Of a stretch of 64,000 nucleotides of DNA, positions 31,307-64,000 are shown piece after piece. The stretch spans positions 1 to 64,000 of the forward strand of contig CANSSP010000018.1 of NCBI GenBank assembly GCA_947649645.1, in the 5' to 3' direction. Source of the stretch: an uncultured Roseburia sp. (GTDB lineage Bacteria; Bacillota; Clostridia; Lachnospirales; Lachnospiraceae). Positions within the stretch are counted from its first letter, which is position 1. Each line of letters starts with the position of its first letter. The notes under the pieces were generated by a model. It saw only the letters and a program-made list of their open reading frames with translations, ran no database searches and was not told where the DNA came from. The position numbers were made by a program, and so were the translations under genes.

Positions 31307-32222
31307 AGCTGACCAGCGGGAAAAGCAGAGTAAATGTCGTCCCGTTCCCCCGTACGCTTTTTACCGTAATTGAACCGTTCATTTTTTCCACAAGCTGATA
31401 AACAATCGATAAGCCAAGACCGCTTCCCTTTTCAGCGCCACCCCTGTCACATTTGTACAGTCGTTCAAAGATATGCTTCAAATCCTCTTTTTCAATTCCT
31501 ACGCCATTGTCTGTTAAAATAATTTCCATATTGCTATTTTTCCTCGACAAAATTATTTCTATTCTGTCGGCACGACTATGCGCAACCACATTCTGAATAA
31601 GATTGTTTACTATGCGCATATACCCGTCTGTATCAAGGTTTACCTTAAACGGCTGTTCGGGAATAACAATGTTATAATCGATCTGGCGCTCTTCCAATAT
31701 CGGTATCCAGTCACTCAGCATATTTCTTGTCAGTTCGGCAGCTTCAACCGTCTTTATCTCCATAGACAGCTCATCTGAATTCAGCTTGAACCAGTCAAAA
31801 AGCACATCTATATATTCCTTCAGATCGTGCGCTTTGCAGCGGGCAATTTCTATATAATTATCACGGTCTATCCCGGTGACAACCTCTTTATGCACTGCAT
31901 CCAGATACCCTATCAGCGTTGTAAGGGGTGTTCTGACGTCATGCGAAAGGCTTGTCATAAGCCGTTTGTTTGTCTCCTCTGTCTGACGAAACGCAGAAAG
32001 CCTGTTCTCATAAGATACGATCATATCATTGATTTCATAGGCAAGCGGCGCGGCAAATTCATCCGCGGCTGATAAAATGCGCCTGTTTCCATTTCCACTC
32101 TTTACATCAGCCAGTACTTCCGTCATTTCAGAAACCCGCTTTTTCACCCGTCTGACAATAAAGCATGAAATGAGAGCAGAAACAATGGCAGCCAGAACGG
32201 AAATAATAACGACAAATTTCAT
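31305..32222 (-). CDS. Sensor histidine kinase without adjacent response regulator
   Basis: 305 residues. One N-terminal membrane segment (VVIISVLAAIVSALISCFIV, residues 4-23) is followed directly by a HAMP-like linker, with almost no extracellular sensor, as in kinases that listen to an ABC transporter. The H-box SLSHDVRTPLTTLIGYL has His94; the N box (IVNNLIQNVVAHS), the G1 motif DNGVGIEKEDL and GSGLGLSIVYQL are intact. The gene has its own promoter and is bounded on both sides by terminators. The usual partner response regulator gene is missing upstream and downstream. Confidence 0.9.
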   Translation of the reverse strand: MKFVVIISVLAAIVSALISCFIVRRVKKRVSEMTEVLADVKSGNGNRRILSAADEFAAPLAYEINDMIVSYENRLSAFRQTEETNKRLMTSLSHDVRTPLTTLIGYLDAVHKEVVTGIDRDNYIEIARCKAHDLKEYIDVLFDWFKLNSDELSMEIKTVEAAELTRNMLSDWIPILEERQIDYNIVIPEQPFKVNLDTDGYMRIVNNLIQNVVAHSRADRIEIILSRKNSNMEIILTDNGVGIEKEDLKHIFERLYKCDRGGAEKGSGLGLSIVYQLVEKMNGSITVKSVRGNGTTFTLLFPLVS

Positions 32223-56423: not shown

Positions 56424-56589
56424 TCTTTAATCTCTTTCCCTTTTATGCATTATGCAGATTGCACAAACCTGTTTTACTTTCCTCGTATTCCCCGCAGTCC
56501 GGGCACATGACCTGACACCCGGACGGTTCCAGACGCATATGATAAAAAATATCATCTACTGCATTCACCTGCACGAGGAGGTTTTTTCA

Positions 56590-58188
56590 ATGGCATCTTC
56601 CGAAACAACCCGCACATTCACTTTCTCCCTGCTCGTAACAGATACCGTCGGAACCTCCGCCGGCAAACCGGCGGGAACACAGGCGTTTTTTGTCTCTGAG
56701 GAAGAACTTATATCTACAGGAGGCACCGATGCTTTTCTGCGGGAGATCCTGACCGGAAACCGGATCATGGAACCACTCGTCCTCCGTGCATCTGTCGGGG
56801 AAAAAATCTGTGTCCGCCTTATCACACCGCGCCCTGCGCAGACAGACAAAACCAGTCCGGTCATCGACAGCCCGCTCTCATTTACAGACGAAAACGGCAG
56901 CATGCTCACCCCGGATCCGGTTTCCGGAAGCGACGGCGATAAAATGCACATCTGGTATTTTCCGGCCAGAAAACAACCTGGCATTCTCTTTTTCCGGAAC
57001 TGCCTTCCCTCTCTCACGGGAAATCAGGACGCCTTTGGCGTCCTGCTGATCGAAGAAGAGCAGTCCTCCTTCCATGCCGTCCGTACCGGCGCCCGTCTGC
57101 GCAGCGGAACAAAGGCCGTCATCCAGAGAGCCGGAAAAAGTGCATTCCGTGAATATGTCCTGTTTATACACCCTATTGCACACCCTGGTACTTTATGCAT
57201 CAATTACCAGGCAGAACCGATTGACGGACGACTGAAAAATCATTGCGACCCCTCCTATGCCTTCAGCTCCAGAGTCCATCACGACCCGGCAACACCGATT
57301 CTGGAAGCCTACCCCGAAGATACCGTTGTCATCCGGATATTTGACCTTACAAAAAATGAGCCTTCTTTCCGCCTTTTCGGAATGGACTGTCATACCGTTT
57401 CCCTGGCCGCACCGGGCTTTTTTGAAGTCCGCATCCCGAAAGCCGGCGCACCGGGCGACTATCTGTACACTTTAGGTACGACAGACAATGCCTGGGAAGG
57501 CCTGTGGGGCATTTTCCGCGTTCACCCAAAATTAAAAAAAAGGCTGCTGCCGCTTGATCCGGCAGACCGCCATACCTTTTCCCGTATGCCCGTCCCAAAA
57601 AAAGACGATGTTATCCGCAGGTATCAAATTATGGCAATCCGGAAAAGGCGCACGGATTCCTCCGGGCCGGAATGGCTCTTTGTCCCCGAAAAAGATAAAA
57701 ACCGTGTTATGCAGACCGGCTACCGTCCAAAACCGATGGTCCTGTCTGCAGATCCCGGAGACTGGATCGAAATCACACTCTGCAATCTGTCCGCAGATCC
57801 CGATGATATATCTTTAAACCTCCCTGCAAAAGAAAAATACCCGGCATATTCCAGACGTGTCTCTCTGCACCCGGAATATCTCTCCTGTGATCCTGTCTGC
57901 GCTTCGGGCATCAATGTCGGATACAATAAAACAGAGCAGACCGTTCCCCCGGGCGGCCATATCACTTATTTGTGGCATGCCGGAACACCGGGCATAACAT
58001 GCCGTCTGCTCCCCTTTGGCGATATCCGTCTTTGTAAGACAGAAACCCCCGGCGTTGTCATCCGTGTCAGACCGGAGACAAACGGCTTTCTCCGTCGTCT
58101 CCGCAGGTATATCTCCCGCGCAAAATCGCGCGCCGCAGACAGCCTTGCGCCTTATACACATTTTCTGAAACGCTGCCGGAAACAATAA
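56590..58188 (+). CDS. Multicopper-oxidase-like (cupredoxin-fold) protein with degenerate copper sites
   Basis: 532 residues from the ATG at 56590 (MASSETTRTFTFSLLV), with GAGGAGG upstream; an open frame to 56452 adds unlikely residues. The arrangement resembles the large MnxG/copper-oxidase branch: DPSYAFSSRVHHDPATPILEAYPEDTVVIR, then GDYLYTLGTTDNAWEGLWGIFRVHP. Where related enzymes have copper-binding His (about HSFxxHGxRWH), this one has PSFRLFGMDCH, and no C-terminal HCH triad is visible; the end reads YLWHAGTPGITCRLLP. No signal peptide is present. It is probably not an active four-copper oxidase. The function is unknown. Confidence 0.72.
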   Translation: MASSETTRTFTFSLLVTDTVGTSAGKPAGTQAFFVSEEELISTGGTDAFLREILTGNRIMEPLVLRASVGEKICVRLITPRPAQTDKTSPVIDSPLSFTDENGSMLTPDPVSGSDGDKMHIWYFPARKQPGILFFRNCLPSLTGNQDAFGVLLIEEEQSSFHAVRTGARLRSGTKAVIQRAGKSAFREYVLFIHPIAHPGTLCINYQAEPIDGRLKNHCDPSYAFSSRVHHDPATPILEAYPEDTVVIRIFDLTKNEPSFRLFGMDCHTVSLAAPGFFEVRIPKAGAPGDYLYTLGTTDNAWEGLWGIFRVHPKLKKRLLPLDPADRHTFSRMPVPKKDDVIRRYQIMAIRKRRTDSSGPEWLFVPEKDKNRVMQTGYRPKPMVLSADPGDWIEITLCNLSADPDDISLNLPAKEKYPAYSRRVSLHPEYLSCDPVCASGINVGYNKTEQTVPPGGHITYLWHAGTPGITCRLLPFGDIRLCKTETPGVVIRVRPETNGFLRRLRRYISRAKSRAADSLAPYTHFLKRCRKQ

Positions 58189-58205
58189 TTTTTAAAACGC
58201 AGCAA

Positions 58206-58235
58206 AGCCGCAGAAACCCTTTTGTCTCTGCGGCT
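58206..58235. terminator. Terminator-like hairpin between convergent genes
   Basis: AGCCGCAGA pairs with TCTGCGGCT around a 12-base loop. T-tracts are short on both strands. Confidence 0.5.
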
Positions 58236-58298
58236 CTTTCACAGACTCCTGCACCGCCCTTTCATTTCCCGTCTGCGTCTGCAGCAACAGATGATTTT

Positions 58299-59429
58299 TC
58301 ATATTTCCCGTGAAATGAAAAAACGATCCAGCCGTGCTCCCAGACGGCTGGCAATTTCGTTCGCAATGGTGCCCGACCACGCCGCGTACTGCTCCATTGT
58401 AACCACTGTTTCTCCCTGTCTGCCGATGAGCACCGCTTCGTCTCCCGCCTGCGCCTCCGGAATATCCGTCACATCCACAAGCATCTGATCCATGCAGATA
58501 CGCCCCACGACAGGCGCTGCCTTTTTGCAGACCACAACATACCCCTTCCCTCCCAGGTTTCTCGGTATTCCGTCCGCATACCCCGCCGAAAGCACGGCAA
58601 GCCTTGTATCCCTGCGCGCTACAAACGCAAGACCATATCCGGCCCCCTCCCCCTGGTTCACCAGACGGACACACTGGATTCGTGCTTTTAAGGAAAGCAC
58701 GGGATAAAGATCGGCCGGAATCTTTGTCCGGTCATCCCCTCCGCTTAAAATCCCGTAAAGCGCAATGCCGGGTCTCACATAATCAAATGTGCAATCCGGA
58801 TAATTGAGAATCCCATAGCTCCCCTGCAGATGGCTTGAAAATCCCTTTATTCCGGCTTTCTCAAGCCGGCCTGCCAGCGCCTTAAACCGCGCAATCTGCA
58901 TTCTCGTAAAACGCTCCGGCTCTTCTCCTCTCTCGTCTGCGGCACACAGGTGCGAATAGATTCCTGTCACCTTAAGTCCTGGCATCCGCCATATTTTTAA
59001 GACCTCATCCCCGGCGTCCCAGCCAATCCCCAGCCGGTGCATTCCGGTATCAATCCCGATCTGCACCAGAAATTTCTTCCCACACTTGTGCAGCACATCG
59101 GCATAGCCTTTATCCACAACCGTCTGCGTCAGCCGGTATTTTTCCAGAAGATTCAGATTTTCGGGGTGCGTATAGCCCAGCACCAGGATCTGCCCTTCAA
59201 TTCCCGCTTCACGCAGTGTCATTCCTTCCTGCGCAGACGCAACACAGAAATCAGAAATCCCCATTCTGTTTAATTCCGCCGCAATCAGAACGGCTCCGTG
59301 GCCATATGCGTCCGCCTTCACCGCCGGCATCAGTCTGCATTTTTCCGGCAGAATACGTCGAAAAAAGTATACATTCTTTTTCAGGCTTTCCGCATCCAGC
59401 TCAATCCACGCTCTCCCTTTTCTGTACAT
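58299..59429 (-). CDS. Alanine/serine racemase, VanT C-terminal-type, separate gene
   Basis: 376 residues. PLP Lys38 is in AVKADAYGHG; the other catalytic Tyr is in GEGAGYGLAF. The start MYRKGRAWIELDAESLKKNV matches the beginning of the racemase half of VanT proteins, and the C-terminal SRLGARL places Ala at the position of Tyr354 of the Geobacillus alanine racemase, as expected for a serine-tolerant pocket (alignment made by eye). A GGAGG lies 8 bases upstream of the ATG, inside the acyltransferase gene, so it is translated independently. Its neighbours (VanT N-half, VanXY, VanG-type ligase) suggest it makes D-Ser, though it may supply D-Ala. Confidence 0.85.
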   Translation of the reverse strand: MYRKGRAWIELDAESLKKNVYFFRRILPEKCRLMPAVKADAYGHGAVLIAAELNRMGISDFCVASAQEGMTLREAGIEGQILVLGYTHPENLNLLEKYRLTQTVVDKGYADVLHKCGKKFLVQIGIDTGMHRLGIGWDAGDEVLKIWRMPGLKVTGIYSHLCAADERGEEPERFTRMQIARFKALAGRLEKAGIKGFSSHLQGSYGILNYPDCTFDYVRPGIALYGILSGGDDRTKIPADLYPVLSLKARIQCVRLVNQGEGAGYGLAFVARRDTRLAVLSAGYADGIPRNLGGKGYVVVCKKAAPVVGRICMDQMLVDVTDIPEAQAGDEAVLIGRQGETVVTMEQYAAWSGTIANEIASRLGARLDRFFISREI

Positions 59430-60519
59430 AACCGTTCCCTCCTCTCCGCCACAATTTTGCGGTCCGCTCCTTAATCAGCGTACAGATGACCCCGGCCGCA
59501 GACGACATAACACAAACTTCCAGATACAAAATCAGACTCTGATCCACCATAACGCTCTCCCATCTGAGTGCCCCCGCCGCTCCGCGCACCAGTACGATAA
59601 AAAGCGGATGTAAAAGCCAGACCCACACTGCCGTCTTTCGCAGAAAAACAGGCGAAAATATGTGGCGGAAAAACACAGGCATCTCCTCTGTGCACAGCTT
59701 ACGGCGCAGCGCCGTCTCCTTTCCGCGCAGTCTTAAAAGAAGCAGAAAACCAAAAAACAGAACCGGAAACAGGCTTATGTACATACTGTTATGCCTCTGC
59801 CAGCCCATGAACCTCGTAAATCCTCCCTCTGCCAGCAGCACGCAGAACGAAATTCCACATCCCCAGAAAAGTGTGCGTCTTTTTATGCCGCACGCGAATC
59901 CGTTTGCCAGCATCGCCCCTGTACACAAAAAGACAGGGGCGAAAAAAAGGCCGTTTCTCGTATAACTGCCCACCTCAAAAAGTCCGGCGTAAAACGCGCG
60001 CAGCGGAGGCGCCTGTACCGCAAGCCCGTACCAGCTGTCCCCGAACACGCCGGTCAGATACAAAAATAATGTCACCGCAAAAGCTCCCGCAGGCCGCAGG
60101 AACGATAGCAGAAACGCCGTGATCAGGCAACCCGACATGACGGCCGGCAGATACCAGAGATGATAAAATGTCCCGTCGAGCACCAGGGCACGCAGCGCCT
60201 CCCAGAGCGTCTCCGGAAGATTTCCCGCATACCAGGCCAGCGGCAGATACAAAACCGTGACCGCCAGATACAACAGCCCCACTCTGCCGGCAAACCGCCA
60301 CACTTTTTTGAAATATACCTTCCTCTCAAAATCGGAAAGCACAAAGTATCCCGTCACCATCAGATAAAAAGGAACACCAATTCTTCCGATCACGTACGTC
60401 AGATAAAAATCCAGTGTTTCACTGATACAGGAAAACGGCCCGATATGAATCGCCACAACCAGAAACGCCGCAGCCAGTCTGAAATCATCCAGTATCGCAT
60501 ACTCTTCCGTTTTCTTCAT
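59401..60519 (-). CDS. Acyltransferase-3-type membrane protein, VanT N-terminal-type, separate gene
   Basis: 372 residues with about ten spans. The start DDFRLAAAFLVVAIHIGPFSC with IGRIGVPFYLMVTGYFVL matches the membrane half of VanT serine racemases, where this domain is thought to bring L-Ser across or near the membrane; it also belongs to the acyltransferase-3 family. It stops 29 bases into the racemase gene in another frame, so a VanT of normal total size is encoded as two overlapping genes. Its ATG overlaps the carboxypeptidase stop (ATGA). Confidence 0.85.
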   Translation of the reverse strand: MKKTEEYAILDDFRLAAAFLVVAIHIGPFSCISETLDFYLTYVIGRIGVPFYLMVTGYFVLSDFERKVYFKKVWRFAGRVGLLYLAVTVLYLPLAWYAGNLPETLWEALRALVLDGTFYHLWYLPAVMSGCLITAFLLSFLRPAGAFAVTLFLYLTGVFGDSWYGLAVQAPPLRAFYAGLFEVGSYTRNGLFFAPVFLCTGAMLANGFACGIKRRTLFWGCGISFCVLLAEGGFTRFMGWQRHNSMYISLFPVLFFGFLLLLRLRGKETALRRKLCTEEMPVFFRHIFSPVFLRKTAVWVWLLHPLFIVLVRGAAGALRWESVMVDQSLILYLEVCVMSSAAGVICTLIKERTAKLWRRGGNGYVQKRESVD

Positions 60520-61310
60520 CGCTCCCCTGCCTCCACCGTGACAATCACACCGTCTATATTATCTCCCGAGATCGAAACAGTTCCGTTTCCGGGCACGGCA
60601 ATGTATACATTTTCTCCCCTGTCTGAAACCCTCAGATAGCCGATTGCCGCCGTTTTTCCTCCCGCACAGTATAAAAAAGGATTGTCCGACAGCTCATACT
60701 GCCTGATCCATCGCACATATTCCTCCAGCACCATTCCCCTCTCCGCCATAATCTGCGCGTGAGGCGTGCCGACATACCGAAAATGCCATGGCTCCGCGCC
60801 GATCCCCGTCTGCTCTTCTCTTCCCGCCGGATAACGCTCCACAAATCCATACTCCGGCGCCAGCCTGCGGAACACCCCGAACATCCCGTCACGTGGAAAT
60901 TCCGGACAGATAAAATCAATCTCTTTCTGTTCTTTTCCAAGATCCATCGCCAGCCCCGTCTCATGTTCACTGCAGCCGGGATATGCAACGTAAGTCTCCG
61001 TAAACACCTGCCCGTTCTCAGCAAGCGAACGCGCAAAAATCCCTGCCTGCTCTTCTCTGCTCCGGTATCCGCTGACACAGACAATCCTTTCTCTGTTTTT
61101 CTCCTCCTGCCAGGCCGCACGCTCACTCGCCGCAATCAGCGCAGTGAGCGCCTGCGCCGCCACAGTCTGCATCCGCATCTTAAGTCGGCTGTCCCGGACA
61201 GCCGAAAGCTCCGGCTCCCGCTCTTCCCGAAGCCGGTGCTTTGCGTTTACCAGGATCAGGCTGCCGCAAAATACGGATTCCCGCGCTATTTTTCTCTGAC
61301 ATATCTTCAT
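60516..61310 (-). CDS. VanXY/VanY-like D,D-carboxypeptidase
   Basis: 264 residues from ATG 61310; a GTG at 61328 adding six residues is also possible. The M15 metallopeptidase core is complete: SGYRS (80-84), SEHETGLAMD with His116 and Asp123 as zinc ligands, and EPWH with catalytic Glu173 and ligand His176. VanXY removes the terminal D-Ala from dipeptide or pentapeptide precursors, sparing D-Ser ends. A C-terminal extension of ~55 residues with beta-strands is unusual. No signal peptide is visible, as in VanXY. Placed between ligase and VanT, as in vanG and vanC operons. Confidence 0.87.
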   Translation of the reverse strand: MKICQRKIARESVFCGSLILVNAKHRLREEREPELSAVRDSRLKMRMQTVAAQALTALIAASERAAWQEEKNRERIVCVSGYRSREEQAGIFARSLAENGQVFTETYVAYPGCSEHETGLAMDLGKEQKEIDFICPEFPRDGMFGVFRRLAPEYGFVERYPAGREEQTGIGAEPWHFRYVGTPHAQIMAERGMVLEEYVRWIRQYELSDNPFLYCAGGKTAAIGYLRVSDRGENVYIAVPGNGTVSISGDNIDGVIVTVEAGER

Positions 61311-61341
61311 TTTCAATCTTTCCTCCACCTCCCCTCCGTTA

Positions 61342-62418
61342 TCACACCGTCAGCCTGTCGATCATTTCCGAAAAGCCGATCCCGGCCGCACGCATCATAC
61401 CCGGAAAACGACTGTGCTCTGTAAATCCGGGTATTGTGTTTACTTCGTTAAAATAAATCTGTCCCTGTGGCGTCAGAAACAAATCCACCCGCGCGAATCC
61501 ACTCAGCCCGAGCGCACGGTAGATCGCCTTCGCCGTCCGCTTTATACGCCCCGCTGTCTCTTTATCGACGCGTGCCGGCACATGAATCCTGGACGTCTTA
61601 AGGTGATACTTTTCCTCATAGTCAAAAAAACCTTCTGACAGCTCGATCTCGTCCACTTCCCCTGTCACGAGCTTCCCCTTTTCCTCGAGAATCGCACATC
61701 CCACTTCAAAACCAGGTATCATCTCCTCCGCCGTCACCAGATCATCGTATTCCAGCGCCCTCTGCACCGCCGCTTCCAGTGCCGAAGGCTCCATCACTTT
61801 TGTTATGCCAAAGGATGAACCCGCCCTGAGCGGCTTGATAAACAGTGGATATCCCAGCTCCCTCGCCCGCGCCATACCTGCCGTCCGCTCTTCTTTAGAA
61901 AAAACGACAGAGGACGGAACGCGCACGCCGGCAGAAGCGGCTACACGGTGCGCCAGCTCCTTGTCCATACAAAGGGCAGACGCCAGCGTCTTACAGCCGA
62001 TCACCGGAATCCCTGCCAGCTCCAGCGCACCCTGCACCGTACCGTCCTCCCCGTTTCTCCCGTGCAGGATCGGAAGCGCCGCGTCTACCGGTAAAAGTTC
62101 CAGCGACACGCCTGTCTCTTTTTCCGGATCCGTTTTTTTCCGCCGCCACCCGTCCGTCCCCCGGCACACCAGAAAGCCATGCCGGTCCCGGTCCAGACAA
62201 AGCGTCAGCGGATAGCATTTATCCCCCGCTTCCCAGGTATCTTCCGGAATCCTCTCCGGCACGCCCTCATACAGATACCACCGTCCCTCCCTGCTGATAC
62301 CGACCATAACCGCTTCCCAATGCGTGCCGTTTCTATTTTTCAACACCGCATATGCAGACTGCAGCGACACCGCATACTCGCTGGAACAGCCGCCAAATAT
62401 AACCGCAATTTTTTTCAT
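61342..62418 (-). CDS. VanG-type D-alanine--D-serine ligase
   Basis: 358 residues from ATG 62418 (MKKIAVIFGGCSSEYAVSLQSA) with AGGAGG upstream. ATP-grasp enzyme making the C-terminal D-Ala-D-X dipeptide. The motifs LPILHGRNGEDGTVQGALELAGIPVIGC, FIKPLRAGSSFGIT, FEVGCAILEEKG, FFDYEEKYHLKTS and FNEVNTIPGF are clear. The segment EKYHLKTSRIHVPARVD closely resembles VanG (EKYTLKSSKIYMPARID as remembered), rather than the D-Ala-D-Ala Ddl or the VanA lactate form. Specificity for D-Ser is thus likely, not proven. It is followed by VanXY and the split VanT; no vanR/vanS is next to it. Confidence 0.88.
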   Translation of the reverse strand: MKKIAVIFGGCSSEYAVSLQSAYAVLKNRNGTHWEAVMVGISREGRWYLYEGVPERIPEDTWEAGDKCYPLTLCLDRDRHGFLVCRGTDGWRRKKTDPEKETGVSLELLPVDAALPILHGRNGEDGTVQGALELAGIPVIGCKTLASALCMDKELAHRVAASAGVRVPSSVVFSKEERTAGMARARELGYPLFIKPLRAGSSFGITKVMEPSALEAAVQRALEYDDLVTAEEMIPGFEVGCAILEEKGKLVTGEVDEIELSEGFFDYEEKYHLKTSRIHVPARVDKETAGRIKRTAKAIYRALGLSGFARVDLFLTPQGQIYFNEVNTIPGFTEHSRFPGMMRAAGIGFSEMIDRLTV

Positions 62419-62554
62419 TTCACACTTTCCTCCTGTTCCGGAACGCGTTTTACCGGTTCCCTGAGACAAGATTATCACGTGAACTCCACTCTGTTCTTAA
62501 CGGATACCTGCAGAATCATTAAGAAATTGCGAATATTTTTTGAAAAAAATCTGA

Positions 62555-62583
62555 TTGACAAAAGCACAACGGCCCGATATACT
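62555..62583 (+). promoter_or_regulatory. Promoter of the rib operon
   Basis: TTGACA, 17-base spacer, TATACT. It points into the FMN riboswitch. Confidence 0.78.
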
Positions 62584-62599
62584 GACTTTATAAATTGAA

Positions 62600-62711
62600 C
62601 AGAATCTTCGGGGCAGGGTGCGATTCCCTACCGGTGGTACAGCCCACGAGCCGCAAGGCATGATTCGGTGTGATTCCGAAGCCGACAGTATAGTCTGGAT
62701 GAGAGAAGATG
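62600..62711 (+). ncRNA. FMN riboswitch (RFN element)
   Basis: The conserved RFN core can be read: CTTCGGGGCAGGGTG, ATTCCCTACCGGTGG, AGCCCACGAGC, then GTGATTCCGAAGCCGACAGT and GGATGAGAGAAG, in the right order. FMN binding would reduce expression of the following ribD. It is about 20 bases from the promoter -10. Confidence 0.95.
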
Positions 62712-62752
62712 ACAACATGCAGAATATTTATATTCCGCATGAGAAGAGATGC

Positions 62753-62781
62753 TCCGGGTGTTTTTACATTCCGGATTTTTT
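62753..62781 (+). terminator. Riboswitch-linked terminator candidate
   Basis: TCCGG pairs with CCGGA across 13 bases and is followed by six T. Short stem; it could be the switching terminator of the FMN riboswitch. Confidence 0.5.
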
Positions 62782-62894
62782 ATGTGCATTATCCTGATTC
62801 ACGGCAGATTTTACCGACGAATGAATAACCATTACGTCCGCGAAACTGCCCGGATCACATCTTTGTGCACAGTTTCTTTTCATCTGCGCTGCCT

Positions 62895-62927
62895 TACCCC
62901 GGACGATCTCATCCGGGGTATTTTTAT
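62895..62927 (+). terminator. Second terminator in the ribD leader
   Basis: TACCCCGGA pairs with TCCGGGGTA, an 8-base loop and five T. It is stronger than the first hairpin. Whether it alternates with the aptamer cannot be told by eye. Confidence 0.6.
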
Positions 62928-63022
62928 TGCACACAGCGCGGTCTGCCGCCAAAGCAGCACACGTAACGTGCAGCGGGCAGGGATACCATCTTCCCTTACC
63001 GCTTTTTCGGGAGGTAACTGTT

Positions 63023-64000
63023 ATGAACGACAAAGAATATATGCGGACGGCAATACGACTTGCAGAACAGGGCACCGGATGGACGGCGCCCAATCCCCTG
63101 GTTGGCGCCGTCATTGTAAAAGACGGAAAGGTCATCGGACAGGGATGGCATGAAAAATACGGACAGCCGCATGCGGAACGGAATGCGCTGGCTTCCTGCA
63201 CGCAATCACCCAGTGGCGCCGACATCTACATCACACTGGAACCCTGCTGTCATCACGGAAAACAGCCGCCCTGCGTCGACGCCATCCTGAAATCCGGCAT
63301 CCGGCGGGTCATCATCGGTTCCGCGGACCCCAATCCGCTCGTAAACGGTAAAGGCATCCGGATTCTGCGCGAACACGGCGTAAAGGTGACGGAACACGTT
63401 CTCACAGAAGACTGTGACCGGCTGAATGAGATATTCTTTCACTATATCCGGACAAAACGCCCCTTTGTGACGATGAAATATGCCATGACAATGGACGGCA
63501 AAACCGCGGCTTTTACAGGTGCTTCAAAGTGGATTACAGGGGAAGCAGCCCGCTCACATGTTCACCGGCAGCGCCATCGCTTTACTGCGATTATGACAGG
63601 AGTCGGAACTGTGATCGCGGATGATCCACTTTTGACCTGCCGGATACCCGGCGGAAAAAATCCGGTCCGCATTATCTGCGATACGCACCTGCGCACACCG
63701 CTTACTGCCCAGGTCGTCTCCACCGCAGGACTGGTCCCCACCATCCTGGCTACCTGCTGCACGGACAGGAAAAAACACCTTCCCTACGAACAAAAAGGGT
63801 GCCGTATCCTCTGTATGGACGAAAAAAACGGCCACACTGACTTACAGAAGCTTATGGAACGCCTTGGGCAGGAAAAAATCGACAGTATTCTTCTGGAAGG
63901 GGGCGGCGCCTTAAACTGGGCCGCCTTAAAAAGCGGAATTGTGCAGAAAGTGCAGGCCTATATCGCCCCGAAGCTGTTCGGCGGTGCGGACGCAAGGACC
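63023..64000 (+). CDS. ribD: Bifunctional riboflavin deaminase/reductase RibD (3' partial)
   Basis: 326 codons are visible; the gene runs off the window. The ATG at 63023 is preceded by GGGAGGT. The N-terminal deaminase domain has the zinc motif HAE (50-52), and TLEPCCHHGKQPPC with Cys75 and Cys84. The C-terminal reductase domain begins near residue 150 (FVTMKYAMTMDGKTAAFTG), and LLEGGGALNWAAL is the NADPH-binding end. It converts the pyrimidine intermediate of riboflavin synthesis in two steps and is controlled by the FMN riboswitch upstream. Confidence 0.95.
   Translation, partial: MNDKEYMRTAIRLAEQGTGWTAPNPLVGAVIVKDGKVIGQGWHEKYGQPHAERNALASCTQSPSGADIYITLEPCCHHGKQPPCVDAILKSGIRRVIIGSADPNPLVNGKGIRILREHGVKVTEHVLTEDCDRLNEIFFHYIRTKRPFVTMKYAMTMDGKTAAFTGASKWITGEAARSHVHRQRHRFTAIMTGVGTVIADDPLLTCRIPGGKNPVRIICDTHLRTPLTAQVVSTAGLVPTILATCCTDRKKHLPYEQKGCRILCMDEKNGHTDLQKLMERLGQEKIDSILLEGGGALNWAALKSGIVQKVQAYIAPKLFGGADART

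What the first reader, a model, noticed from the sequence alone, without database searches (positions are those of the whole stretch)
58299..62418. vanG-type cluster with VanT split into two independently translated genes
Seen: ligase, VanXY-like peptidase, acyltransferase-3 protein and racemase follow in the order of vanG-vanXY-vanT. The last two would form one VanT protein, but here overlap by 29 bases in different frames. The racemase has its own GGAGG eight bases before ATG. Known: VanT in VanC and VanG clusters is a single membrane racemase. Inference: this is a genuine split (or an ancestral unfused state), not a simple frameshift, because a ribosome site exists.
Basis: partly seen in the sequence, partly recalled or inferred. 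Interest (0 to 1): 0.72.

Follow-up and report, generated by a model that had tools for sequence, protein, structure and literature searches.

The report
Vancomycin-resistance racemase split into two genes
In this bacterium of the Lachnospiraceae family a protein that makes D-serine for a vancomycin-resistant type of cell wall is encoded as two neighbouring genes instead of one; the split is real and shared by relatives, but such a split was already known from one enterococcal gene cluster.

Summary
In detail: a VanG-type ligase, VanXY-like peptidase, AT3 membrane protein and racemase form one minus-strand operon. The last two overlap by 29 nt in different frames, and GGAGG stands 8 nt before the racemase ATG. 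It is not a sequencing error: G050 of the same genus (racemase 69% identical) and seven further loci have the racemase starting at the same MY site. An ancestral unfused state is disfavoured: on a rooted racemase tree this split derives from a fused ancestor. Over the Clostridia sampled, splits arose more than once (one clade rejected, AU p 6e-12). The racemase keeps its PLP lysine, tyrosine and serine-racemase asparagine; the membrane half keeps R-X10-H.

So this is a VanG-type variant of a known arrangement. Its recurrence, and clusters with no membrane half beside the racemase, bear on the open question of what VanT's AT3 domain does.

The parts
61342..62418 (-). VanG-type D-Ala--D-Ser ligase (first gene)
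   Evidence: VanG model 489.4 bits (cut-off 495); best solved relative 4fu0 (E 8e-116); EKY in the stretch aligned to 4fu0, also EKY there
60516..61328 (-). VanXY-like D,D-peptidase
   Evidence: Pfam VanY 98 bits (cut-off 25); VanXY-G model 212.6 (cut-off 500), VanXY 185.7 (cut-off 250); SEHETGLAMD and EPWH present in the translation (that these are the metal-binding motifs is recalled)
59401..60519 (-). membrane half of VanT (AT3 / acyltransferase-3 domain), stand-alone gene; overlaps the VanXY gene by 4 nt
   Evidence: Pfam Acyl_transf_3 85.2 bits (cut-off 31); matches positions 4-326 of the 697-position VanT-CELN model; VanT-L membrane subunit 139 bits; R-X10-H present; all-helical AlphaFold2 model, pLDDT 82
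58299..59429 (-). racemase half of VanT (serine racemase catalytic subunit), stand-alone gene
   Evidence: NF033131 above cut-off; best solved relative 4ecl; K38, Y265, N357
59401..59429 (-). 29-nt overlap of the two halves, different frames
59430..59449 (-). Shine-Dalgarno-bearing stretch of the racemase gene (GGAGG, 8 nt, ATG)
58204..58237 (-). intrinsic-terminator-like hairpin after the racemase gene
   Evidence: 14 pairs; 7 such sites found in 58000-63100 against a mean of 5.8 in shuffles, so not significant by itself

Best explanation
This is a VanG-type D-Ala-D-Ser operon (ligase, VanXY-like, membrane AT3 half, racemase half) in a Lachnospiraceae genome in which VanT has undergone gene fission at the AT3/racemase linker. 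A soluble serine racemase is translated from its own strong ribosome site, overlapping the end of the membrane gene, and makes D-Ser from L-Ser in the cytoplasm. The ligase joins D-Ser to D-Ala and VanXY trims D-Ala-ending precursors. The AT3 half is made as a separate membrane protein that keeps its AT3 signature and does its own, still unproven, job (L-Ser entry or transmembrane acyl transfer). The split derives from a fused ancestor and has been inherited by a clade of relatives. Shown: gene order, split, shared junction, conserved residues, purifying selection in the pairs measured. Supported by the tree: the derived state. Inferred: enzyme activities, cytoplasmic location, resistance, and whether the halves still touch.
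For: Anatomy and ribosome site. Serine-racemase signs: K38 in 77 of 77, Y265 in 76 of 77 (one unreadable) and N357 in 77 of 77 VanT-type racemases, against Y at the N357 site in 2 of 2 plain alanine racemases, one being the own genome's; 4ecl has N there too. Shared junction: 9 loci have the racemase start at MY, 8 of 9 with the same +1 offset, overlaps 8-56 nt. Ribosome-site energy in these 9: median -8.5 against -2.9 at the same place in 51 fused genes (Mann-Whitney p 5e-5). AT3 R/K-X10-H in 18 of 18 split and 45 of 48 fused proteins (the 3 misses are matches lacking the N-terminus). dN/dS window vs G050: AT3 0.27, racemase 0.145. The AT3 and racemase trees both pair the window with G050 (99; 100/100) inside largely the same wider group. 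Ancestral states.
Against: No expression, racemase or resistance data. Ligase and XY score under their NCBIfam cut-offs. No VanS-like kinase beside the operon. dS between window and G050 is near saturation (1.3-1.7). The clade holding all nine MY-type splits has only moderate support (88/92) and contains three fused rows. In the AT3 tree (quick, SH-aLRT only) the split label needs 11 changes against 8 in the racemase tree, and some loci move: L106 leaves the group, L083 and L087 are not sisters, and L059/L060 sit with L070-L075 instead of with the window. AT3-racemase distances correlate less in split loci (r 0.57, n 19) than in fused ones (r 0.77, n 48), so some halves may have separate histories. 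Foldseek gave no solved match to the AT3 model.
Confidence: 0.8

Rival explanations
1. Ancestral unfused state: AT3 and racemase were always separate here and fused elsewhere.
For: Three fused rows (L059, L060, L071) lie inside the window's mostly split clade, so fusion may also happen; with fission made three times as costly as fusion, a split root is cheaper (14 against 16), and at two to one they tie at 13.
Against: At equal costs a fused root needs 7 changes against 8; Mk root P(split) 0.03-0.06; the node directly above the clade P(split) 0.04-0.05. The plasmid VanN VanT (2103 nt), the Subdoligranulum vanT call (2175 nt) and the Enterococcus sp. BWB1-3 gene are fused.
Confidence: 0.1
2. 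Sequencing or assembly frame error in a normally fused gene.
For: The genome is a 41-contig assembly; 10 of 12 VanT-type racemases found in the genus are fused.
Against: A like junction in G050 and seven other loci from other genomes, with varied overlap lengths; dedicated ribosome site; start codon at the linker.
Confidence: 0.02
3. Programmed frameshifting joins the two frames, so that a fused protein is also made.
For: Long overlap and a constant +1 offset in 8 of 9 loci.
Against: Overlap lengths range from 8 to 56 nt, the offset differs in L070, and no shared slippery site was seen by eye in the nine printed junctions; that +1 shifts are the rarer kind is recalled.
Confidence: 0.04
4. Decaying cryptic cluster: the split is a step in the loss of an unused resistance operon.
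For: The VanRS-like pair is unlinked; no XY match at the sister locus L058 and at other loci; an incomplete vanG operon without racemase is reported in C. bolteae (PMC5073890 passage).
Against: Both halves open and dN/dS below 1 in the pairs that could be measured; active-site residues in 19 of 19 split racemases and the AT3 motif in 18 of 18 split AT3 halves.
Confidence: 0.1

Closest known systems
VanL cluster of Enterococcus faecalis N06-0364 (vanTmL + vanTrL)
   Same: VanT encoded by two genes, membrane half and racemase half, in a D-Ala-D-Ser cluster (PMC9404765 passage and PMC11597547 figure legend; NCBIfam NF000033 and NF033133). The original paper (Boyd 2008) is not held and was not read.
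   Different: The window's proteins score far better on VanG-type than VanL models (racemase 512.7 against 289.1 bits; ligase 489.4 against 271.1), so probably a separate fission; a VanL sequence was not placed in the tree.
VanG clusters (vanURS, vanY-W-G-XY-T in E. faecalis BM4518; PMC4405338 passage)
   Same: Order ligase-XY-VanT and ligase/racemase family
   Different: VanTG is one protein, here two. No vanR/vanS neighbour; vanU, vanY and vanW were not seen among the neighbouring ORFs read by eye, but were not searched for.
NCBIfam NF033131 'serine racemase VanT catalytic subunit'
   Same: The racemase passes its curated cut-off; the name suggests that the curators met catalytic parts on their own (inference)
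   Different: The model says nothing about gene structure or history

Membership tests
VanG-type D-Ala-D-Ser cluster | VanG-type ligase | tested here: inconclusive
   Best model VanG, 489.4 bits, 5.6 under the cut-off of 495; best solved relative VanG 4fu0
VanG-type D-Ala-D-Ser cluster | VanXY | tested here: inconclusive
   Best model VanXY-G but 212.6 against cut-off 500; general VanXY 185.7 against 250
VanG-type D-Ala-D-Ser cluster | serine racemase catalytic domain with the serine-specific Asn | tested here: met
   NF033131 above cut-off; N357; that this Asn marks serine racemases is recalled from Meziane-Cherif 2015 (not read)
VanG-type D-Ala-D-Ser cluster | VanT as one membrane-bound protein | tested here: not met
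   Two genes, 29-nt overlap, different frames
VanG-type D-Ala-D-Ser cluster | linked vanRS | tested here: not met
   A VanS query from L069 finds its best match on contig C11 (49%); the only listed match on the window's contig is a weak one (27%) at 31356-32210; no RR/HK pair beside the operon
VanG-type D-Ala-D-Ser cluster | vanU, vanY, vanW in the cluster | not tested
   not searched for
VanG-type D-Ala-D-Ser cluster | low-level vancomycin resistance by D-Ala-D-Ser precursors | not testable with these tools
   needs the strain
VanL-type (split VanT) | separate VanT membrane and racemase genes | tested here: met
VanL-type (split VanT) | VanL-family ligase and subunits | tested here: not met
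   VanL ligase 271.1 against cut-off 750; vanT-L-cat 289.1 against 750; vanT-L-mem 139.4 against 675
AT3 acyltransferase family | Acyl_transf_3 domain with R/K-X10-H in the first helix | tested here: met
   Pfam 85.2 bits against 31; motif present; that it is the AT3 signature is recalled

The most novel reading that the evidence does not exclude
In Clostridia the AT3 and racemase parts of VanT behave as two separable functions. Fission at the linker has happened repeatedly, some clusters have no AT3 part beside the racemase, and the stand-alone AT3 keeps an acyltransferase signature. This would mean the AT3 part is an independent envelope-modifying or serine-handling enzyme rather than a mere anchor for the racemase.
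Probability: 0.35. Interest if true: 0.6.

Novelty: new variant of a known kind. Interest (0 to 1): 0.4.

Why it matters
What VanT's membrane domain does is an open question: a serine transporter has been proposed, and recent work argues that an acyl-transfer function has been overlooked (PMC9558356 and PMC12423673 passages). Naturally separate halves, and clusters without the membrane half beside the racemase, let each part be studied alone with native ends. They also matter for annotation: a resistance-gene caller that expects one long vanT may miss or misname both halves (inference).

Tried and rejected
Rejected: frame error (recurs in relatives); ancestral unfused state (disfavoured); programmed frameshift (no shared slip site seen, varied overlaps); one single origin for all splits (AU p 5.8e-12). 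Not settled: whether L059, L060 and L071 re-fused. Holding the nine MY-type splits together without them is not rejected (p 0.156). Both AU tests were run after seeing the tree.

Led nowhere: fold search of the AT3 model in solved structures, 0 of 288 matches at E 0.001 or better, so the AT3 assignment rests on sequence; PHROGs on two neighbours, nothing; the named genome scan returned 80 loci of which 7 had ligase or AT3 matches beside the racemase; the ribD comparison used a wrong query and was redone (no hit in 74 stretches). A VanL sequence could not be added to the tree.

Rows dropped or not looked at: in the family search I fetched the best 43 non-window matches (of more than 150 listed, the list itself being cut) and went no further down; L108, L109 and L111 of these are not counted as VanT (no ligase or AT3 beside them; they group with the own genome's alanine racemase). 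L108 and L109 were left out of the tree, L111 kept as outgroup. L132 and L137 repeat L072 and L120 and were left out; L085 and L133 are identical in the racemase and both kept. Of 30 class-level genomes with a match two were already held, 20 were fetched and 8 were not looked at (G596, G548, G364, G370, G383, G526, G689, G625). L071, L092 and L128 count as fused although their AT3 match lacks the N-terminus.

Full report
Observation. On the minus strand the window carries a ligase (61342-62418), a VanXY-like peptidase (60516-61328), an AT3 membrane protein (59401-60519) and a racemase (58299-59429). The VanXY and AT3 genes overlap by 4 nt, the AT3 and racemase genes by 29 nt. The racemase lies in the +1 frame of the AT3 gene, and its ATG follows GGAGG by 8 nt. 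The finding's description is confirmed.

Host. The genome is G000, 41 contigs. It shares its family code with G062, whose contig C48 has the length (14444) and the racemase coordinates of a named 'Lachnospiraceae bacterium' record (L132), so I infer Lachnospiraceae.

Identity. NCBIfam puts the racemase above the cut-off of 'serine racemase VanT catalytic subunit' and the ligase just under that of VanG. VanXY-G is the best but weak model for the peptidase. The AT3 half matches positions 4-326 of the 697-position fused VanT model and the separate 'VanT-L membrane subunit' model, both under cut-off. The best solved relatives are 4ecl (serine racemase) and 4fu0 (VanG). The own genome also has a second racemase (35% identical to this one) and a further ligase-like gene (33%) plus a weak third match, so this cluster appears to be an extra set.

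Is the split real? In the genus (62 genomes) 12 have a VanT-type racemase at E 1e-85 or better: two split (window and G050), ten fused. G050's racemase is 69% identical and overlaps its AT3 gene by 35 nt in the same +1 offset. Its operon also faces, convergently, a 44% relative of the window's 56452-58188 gene; no hit was found in the other 73 fetched stretches, which are only about 4-16 kb each. So this looks like the same locus, split in both. In the family-level search (299 genomes) I examined 41 VanT-type loci, window included: 15 split, 22 fused, 3 without an AT3 match beside the racemase, 1 at a contig end. In the class-level search (391 genomes) I examined 20 of 28 new hits: 2 split, 16 fused, 2 at contig ends. 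One further named split locus is an Anaerocolumna MAG (L136).

Junction. Nine loci (window, L058, L069, L070, L072, L073, L074, L075, L113) have the racemase start at MY just before the RAW motif; L073 may start five codons earlier. Overlaps run from 8 to 56 nt (L073: 14 nt from its earlier start, none from MY). Eight of nine share the +1 offset; L070 does not. Fused genes have no start codon at that place in 48 of 51 cases, and their ribosome-site energy there is weak (median -2.9 against -8.5 in the nine; p 5e-5). The other ten split loci have different junctions: nine were printed, and L136 was seen only as ORF ranges, with a gap.

History. The tree of 79 racemases (51 fused, 19 split, 4 without AT3, 3 unknown, 2 alanine racemases) needs 8 changes of the split label, and well-supported branches force at least 6. 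Treating the 7 undecided rows as unknown and leaving out the outgroup, 7 changes suffice. One clade for all splits is rejected (AU p 5.8e-12). With the root on the alanine racemases, the node directly above the window's clade is fused (P split 0.04-0.05) and the clade is split (0.88, rising to 0.98-0.99 inside). That argues for fission. If fission is held to be two or three times as costly as fusion, the root state is a tie or turns to split. Three fused loci inside the clade could be re-fusions, but this is not shown (p 0.156).

Do the halves travel together? The AT3 tree (quick method, SH-aLRT only) also pairs the window with G050 (99) and finds an eleven-row group (98) that shares ten loci with the racemase tree's eleven-row group (99/96); L073 is only in the former, and L082, only in the latter, has no AT3 sequence. 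But there are disagreements: the split label needs 11 changes on the AT3 tree, L106 falls outside, L083 and L087 are not sisters, and L059/L060 join L070-L075. Over all split loci the AT3-racemase distance correlation (0.57, n 19) is lower than in fused ones (0.77, n 48). So co-inheritance is good near the window and not proven everywhere.

Function. PLP lysine 38 is present in 77 of 77 VanT-type racemases, tyrosine 265 in 76 of 77 (one unreadable) and asparagine 357 in 77 of 77; the two alanine racemases have Tyr at the last site. That the Asn marks serine racemases is recalled. AT3 halves keep R/K-X10-H in 18 of 18 split and 45 of 48 fused proteins; the three without it are matches lacking the N-terminus (L136 and the other loci were not in that count). 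dN/dS is below 1 in the pairs that could be measured (window vs G050: AT3 0.27, racemase 0.145, with dS near saturation; L074 vs L075: 0.39 and 0.225; L074 vs L072: AT3 0.15, racemase dS saturated). AlphaFold2 gives an all-helical AT3 model (pLDDT 82, seven sequences); the fold search gave no solved match. Most likely: a soluble D-Ser-making enzyme translated on its own, plus a separate AT3 membrane protein. Published proposals for that domain are L-serine transport and transmembrane acyl transfer (passages of PMC9558356 and PMC12423673); the membrane domain of VanTG has been expressed alone in E. coli (PMC6182600 passages). Loci with ligase and racemase but no AT3 match beside them (L077, L107, L134) suggest that the AT3 part is not always needed in the cluster, although an unlinked copy was not looked for.

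Regulation. No two-component pair flanks the operon. A VanRS-like pair lies on another contig (HK 358.8 bits against cut-off 400, RR 342.0 against 350), and G050's counterpart of the kinase (67%) is likewise on another contig than its van operon. The related split loci L069 and L070 have VanRS directly upstream of the ligase.

Known or new. PMC9404765 states that VanL's VanT is encoded by vanTmL and vanTrL (passage); PMC11597547 lists vanTm and vanTr in a figure legend. The split as such is therefore known, contrary to the finding's premise. A split VanT in VanG-type clusters of Lachnospiraceae was not seen in eight paper searches (listings) or in the passages found in nine opened papers. The library lacks most subscription journals, including Boyd 2008. 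Verdict: a real, inherited, recurrent variant of a known arrangement.

Noticed in passing
L216 7336-9178 (own genome, contig C11); G050 contig C36:29451-30560: VanRS-like regulator pair lies on another contig than the van operon in this genome; the kinase likewise in G050, and kinase matches and VanT lie on different contigs in G055 and G011.
   Followed up: partly
window 56452-58188 (+): 578-aa protein with only a weak multicopper-oxidase-like hit (MnxG, 18.8 bits) and no Pfam match, convergent with the racemase gene; a 44% relative sits in the same place in G050, with no hit in 73 other fetched stretches.
   Followed up: partly
window 62555-62714 (+): FMN riboswitch (RF00050, 110.6 bits) behind a TTGACA-17-TATACT promoter-like site, divergent from the van operon and ahead of genes that read like a riboflavin operon (names recalled, not run against families).
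   Followed up: partly
L077, L107, L134; L079: Ligase-racemase clusters with no AT3 match beside them; L079 has a VanT-type racemase with neither a ligase nor an AT3 match in the fetched stretch.
   Followed up: no
L058, L069, L070, L072 and fused L062-L066: No VanXY match listed in the fetched stretch of many loci, including the window's nearest relative.
   Followed up: no
L085 3989-6856: VanXY homologue in two pieces about 2 kb apart, as if interrupted.
   Followed up: no
L059, L060, L071: Fused VanT genes whose linkers differ from the others, nested in the mostly split clade: possible re-fusions.
   Followed up: partly
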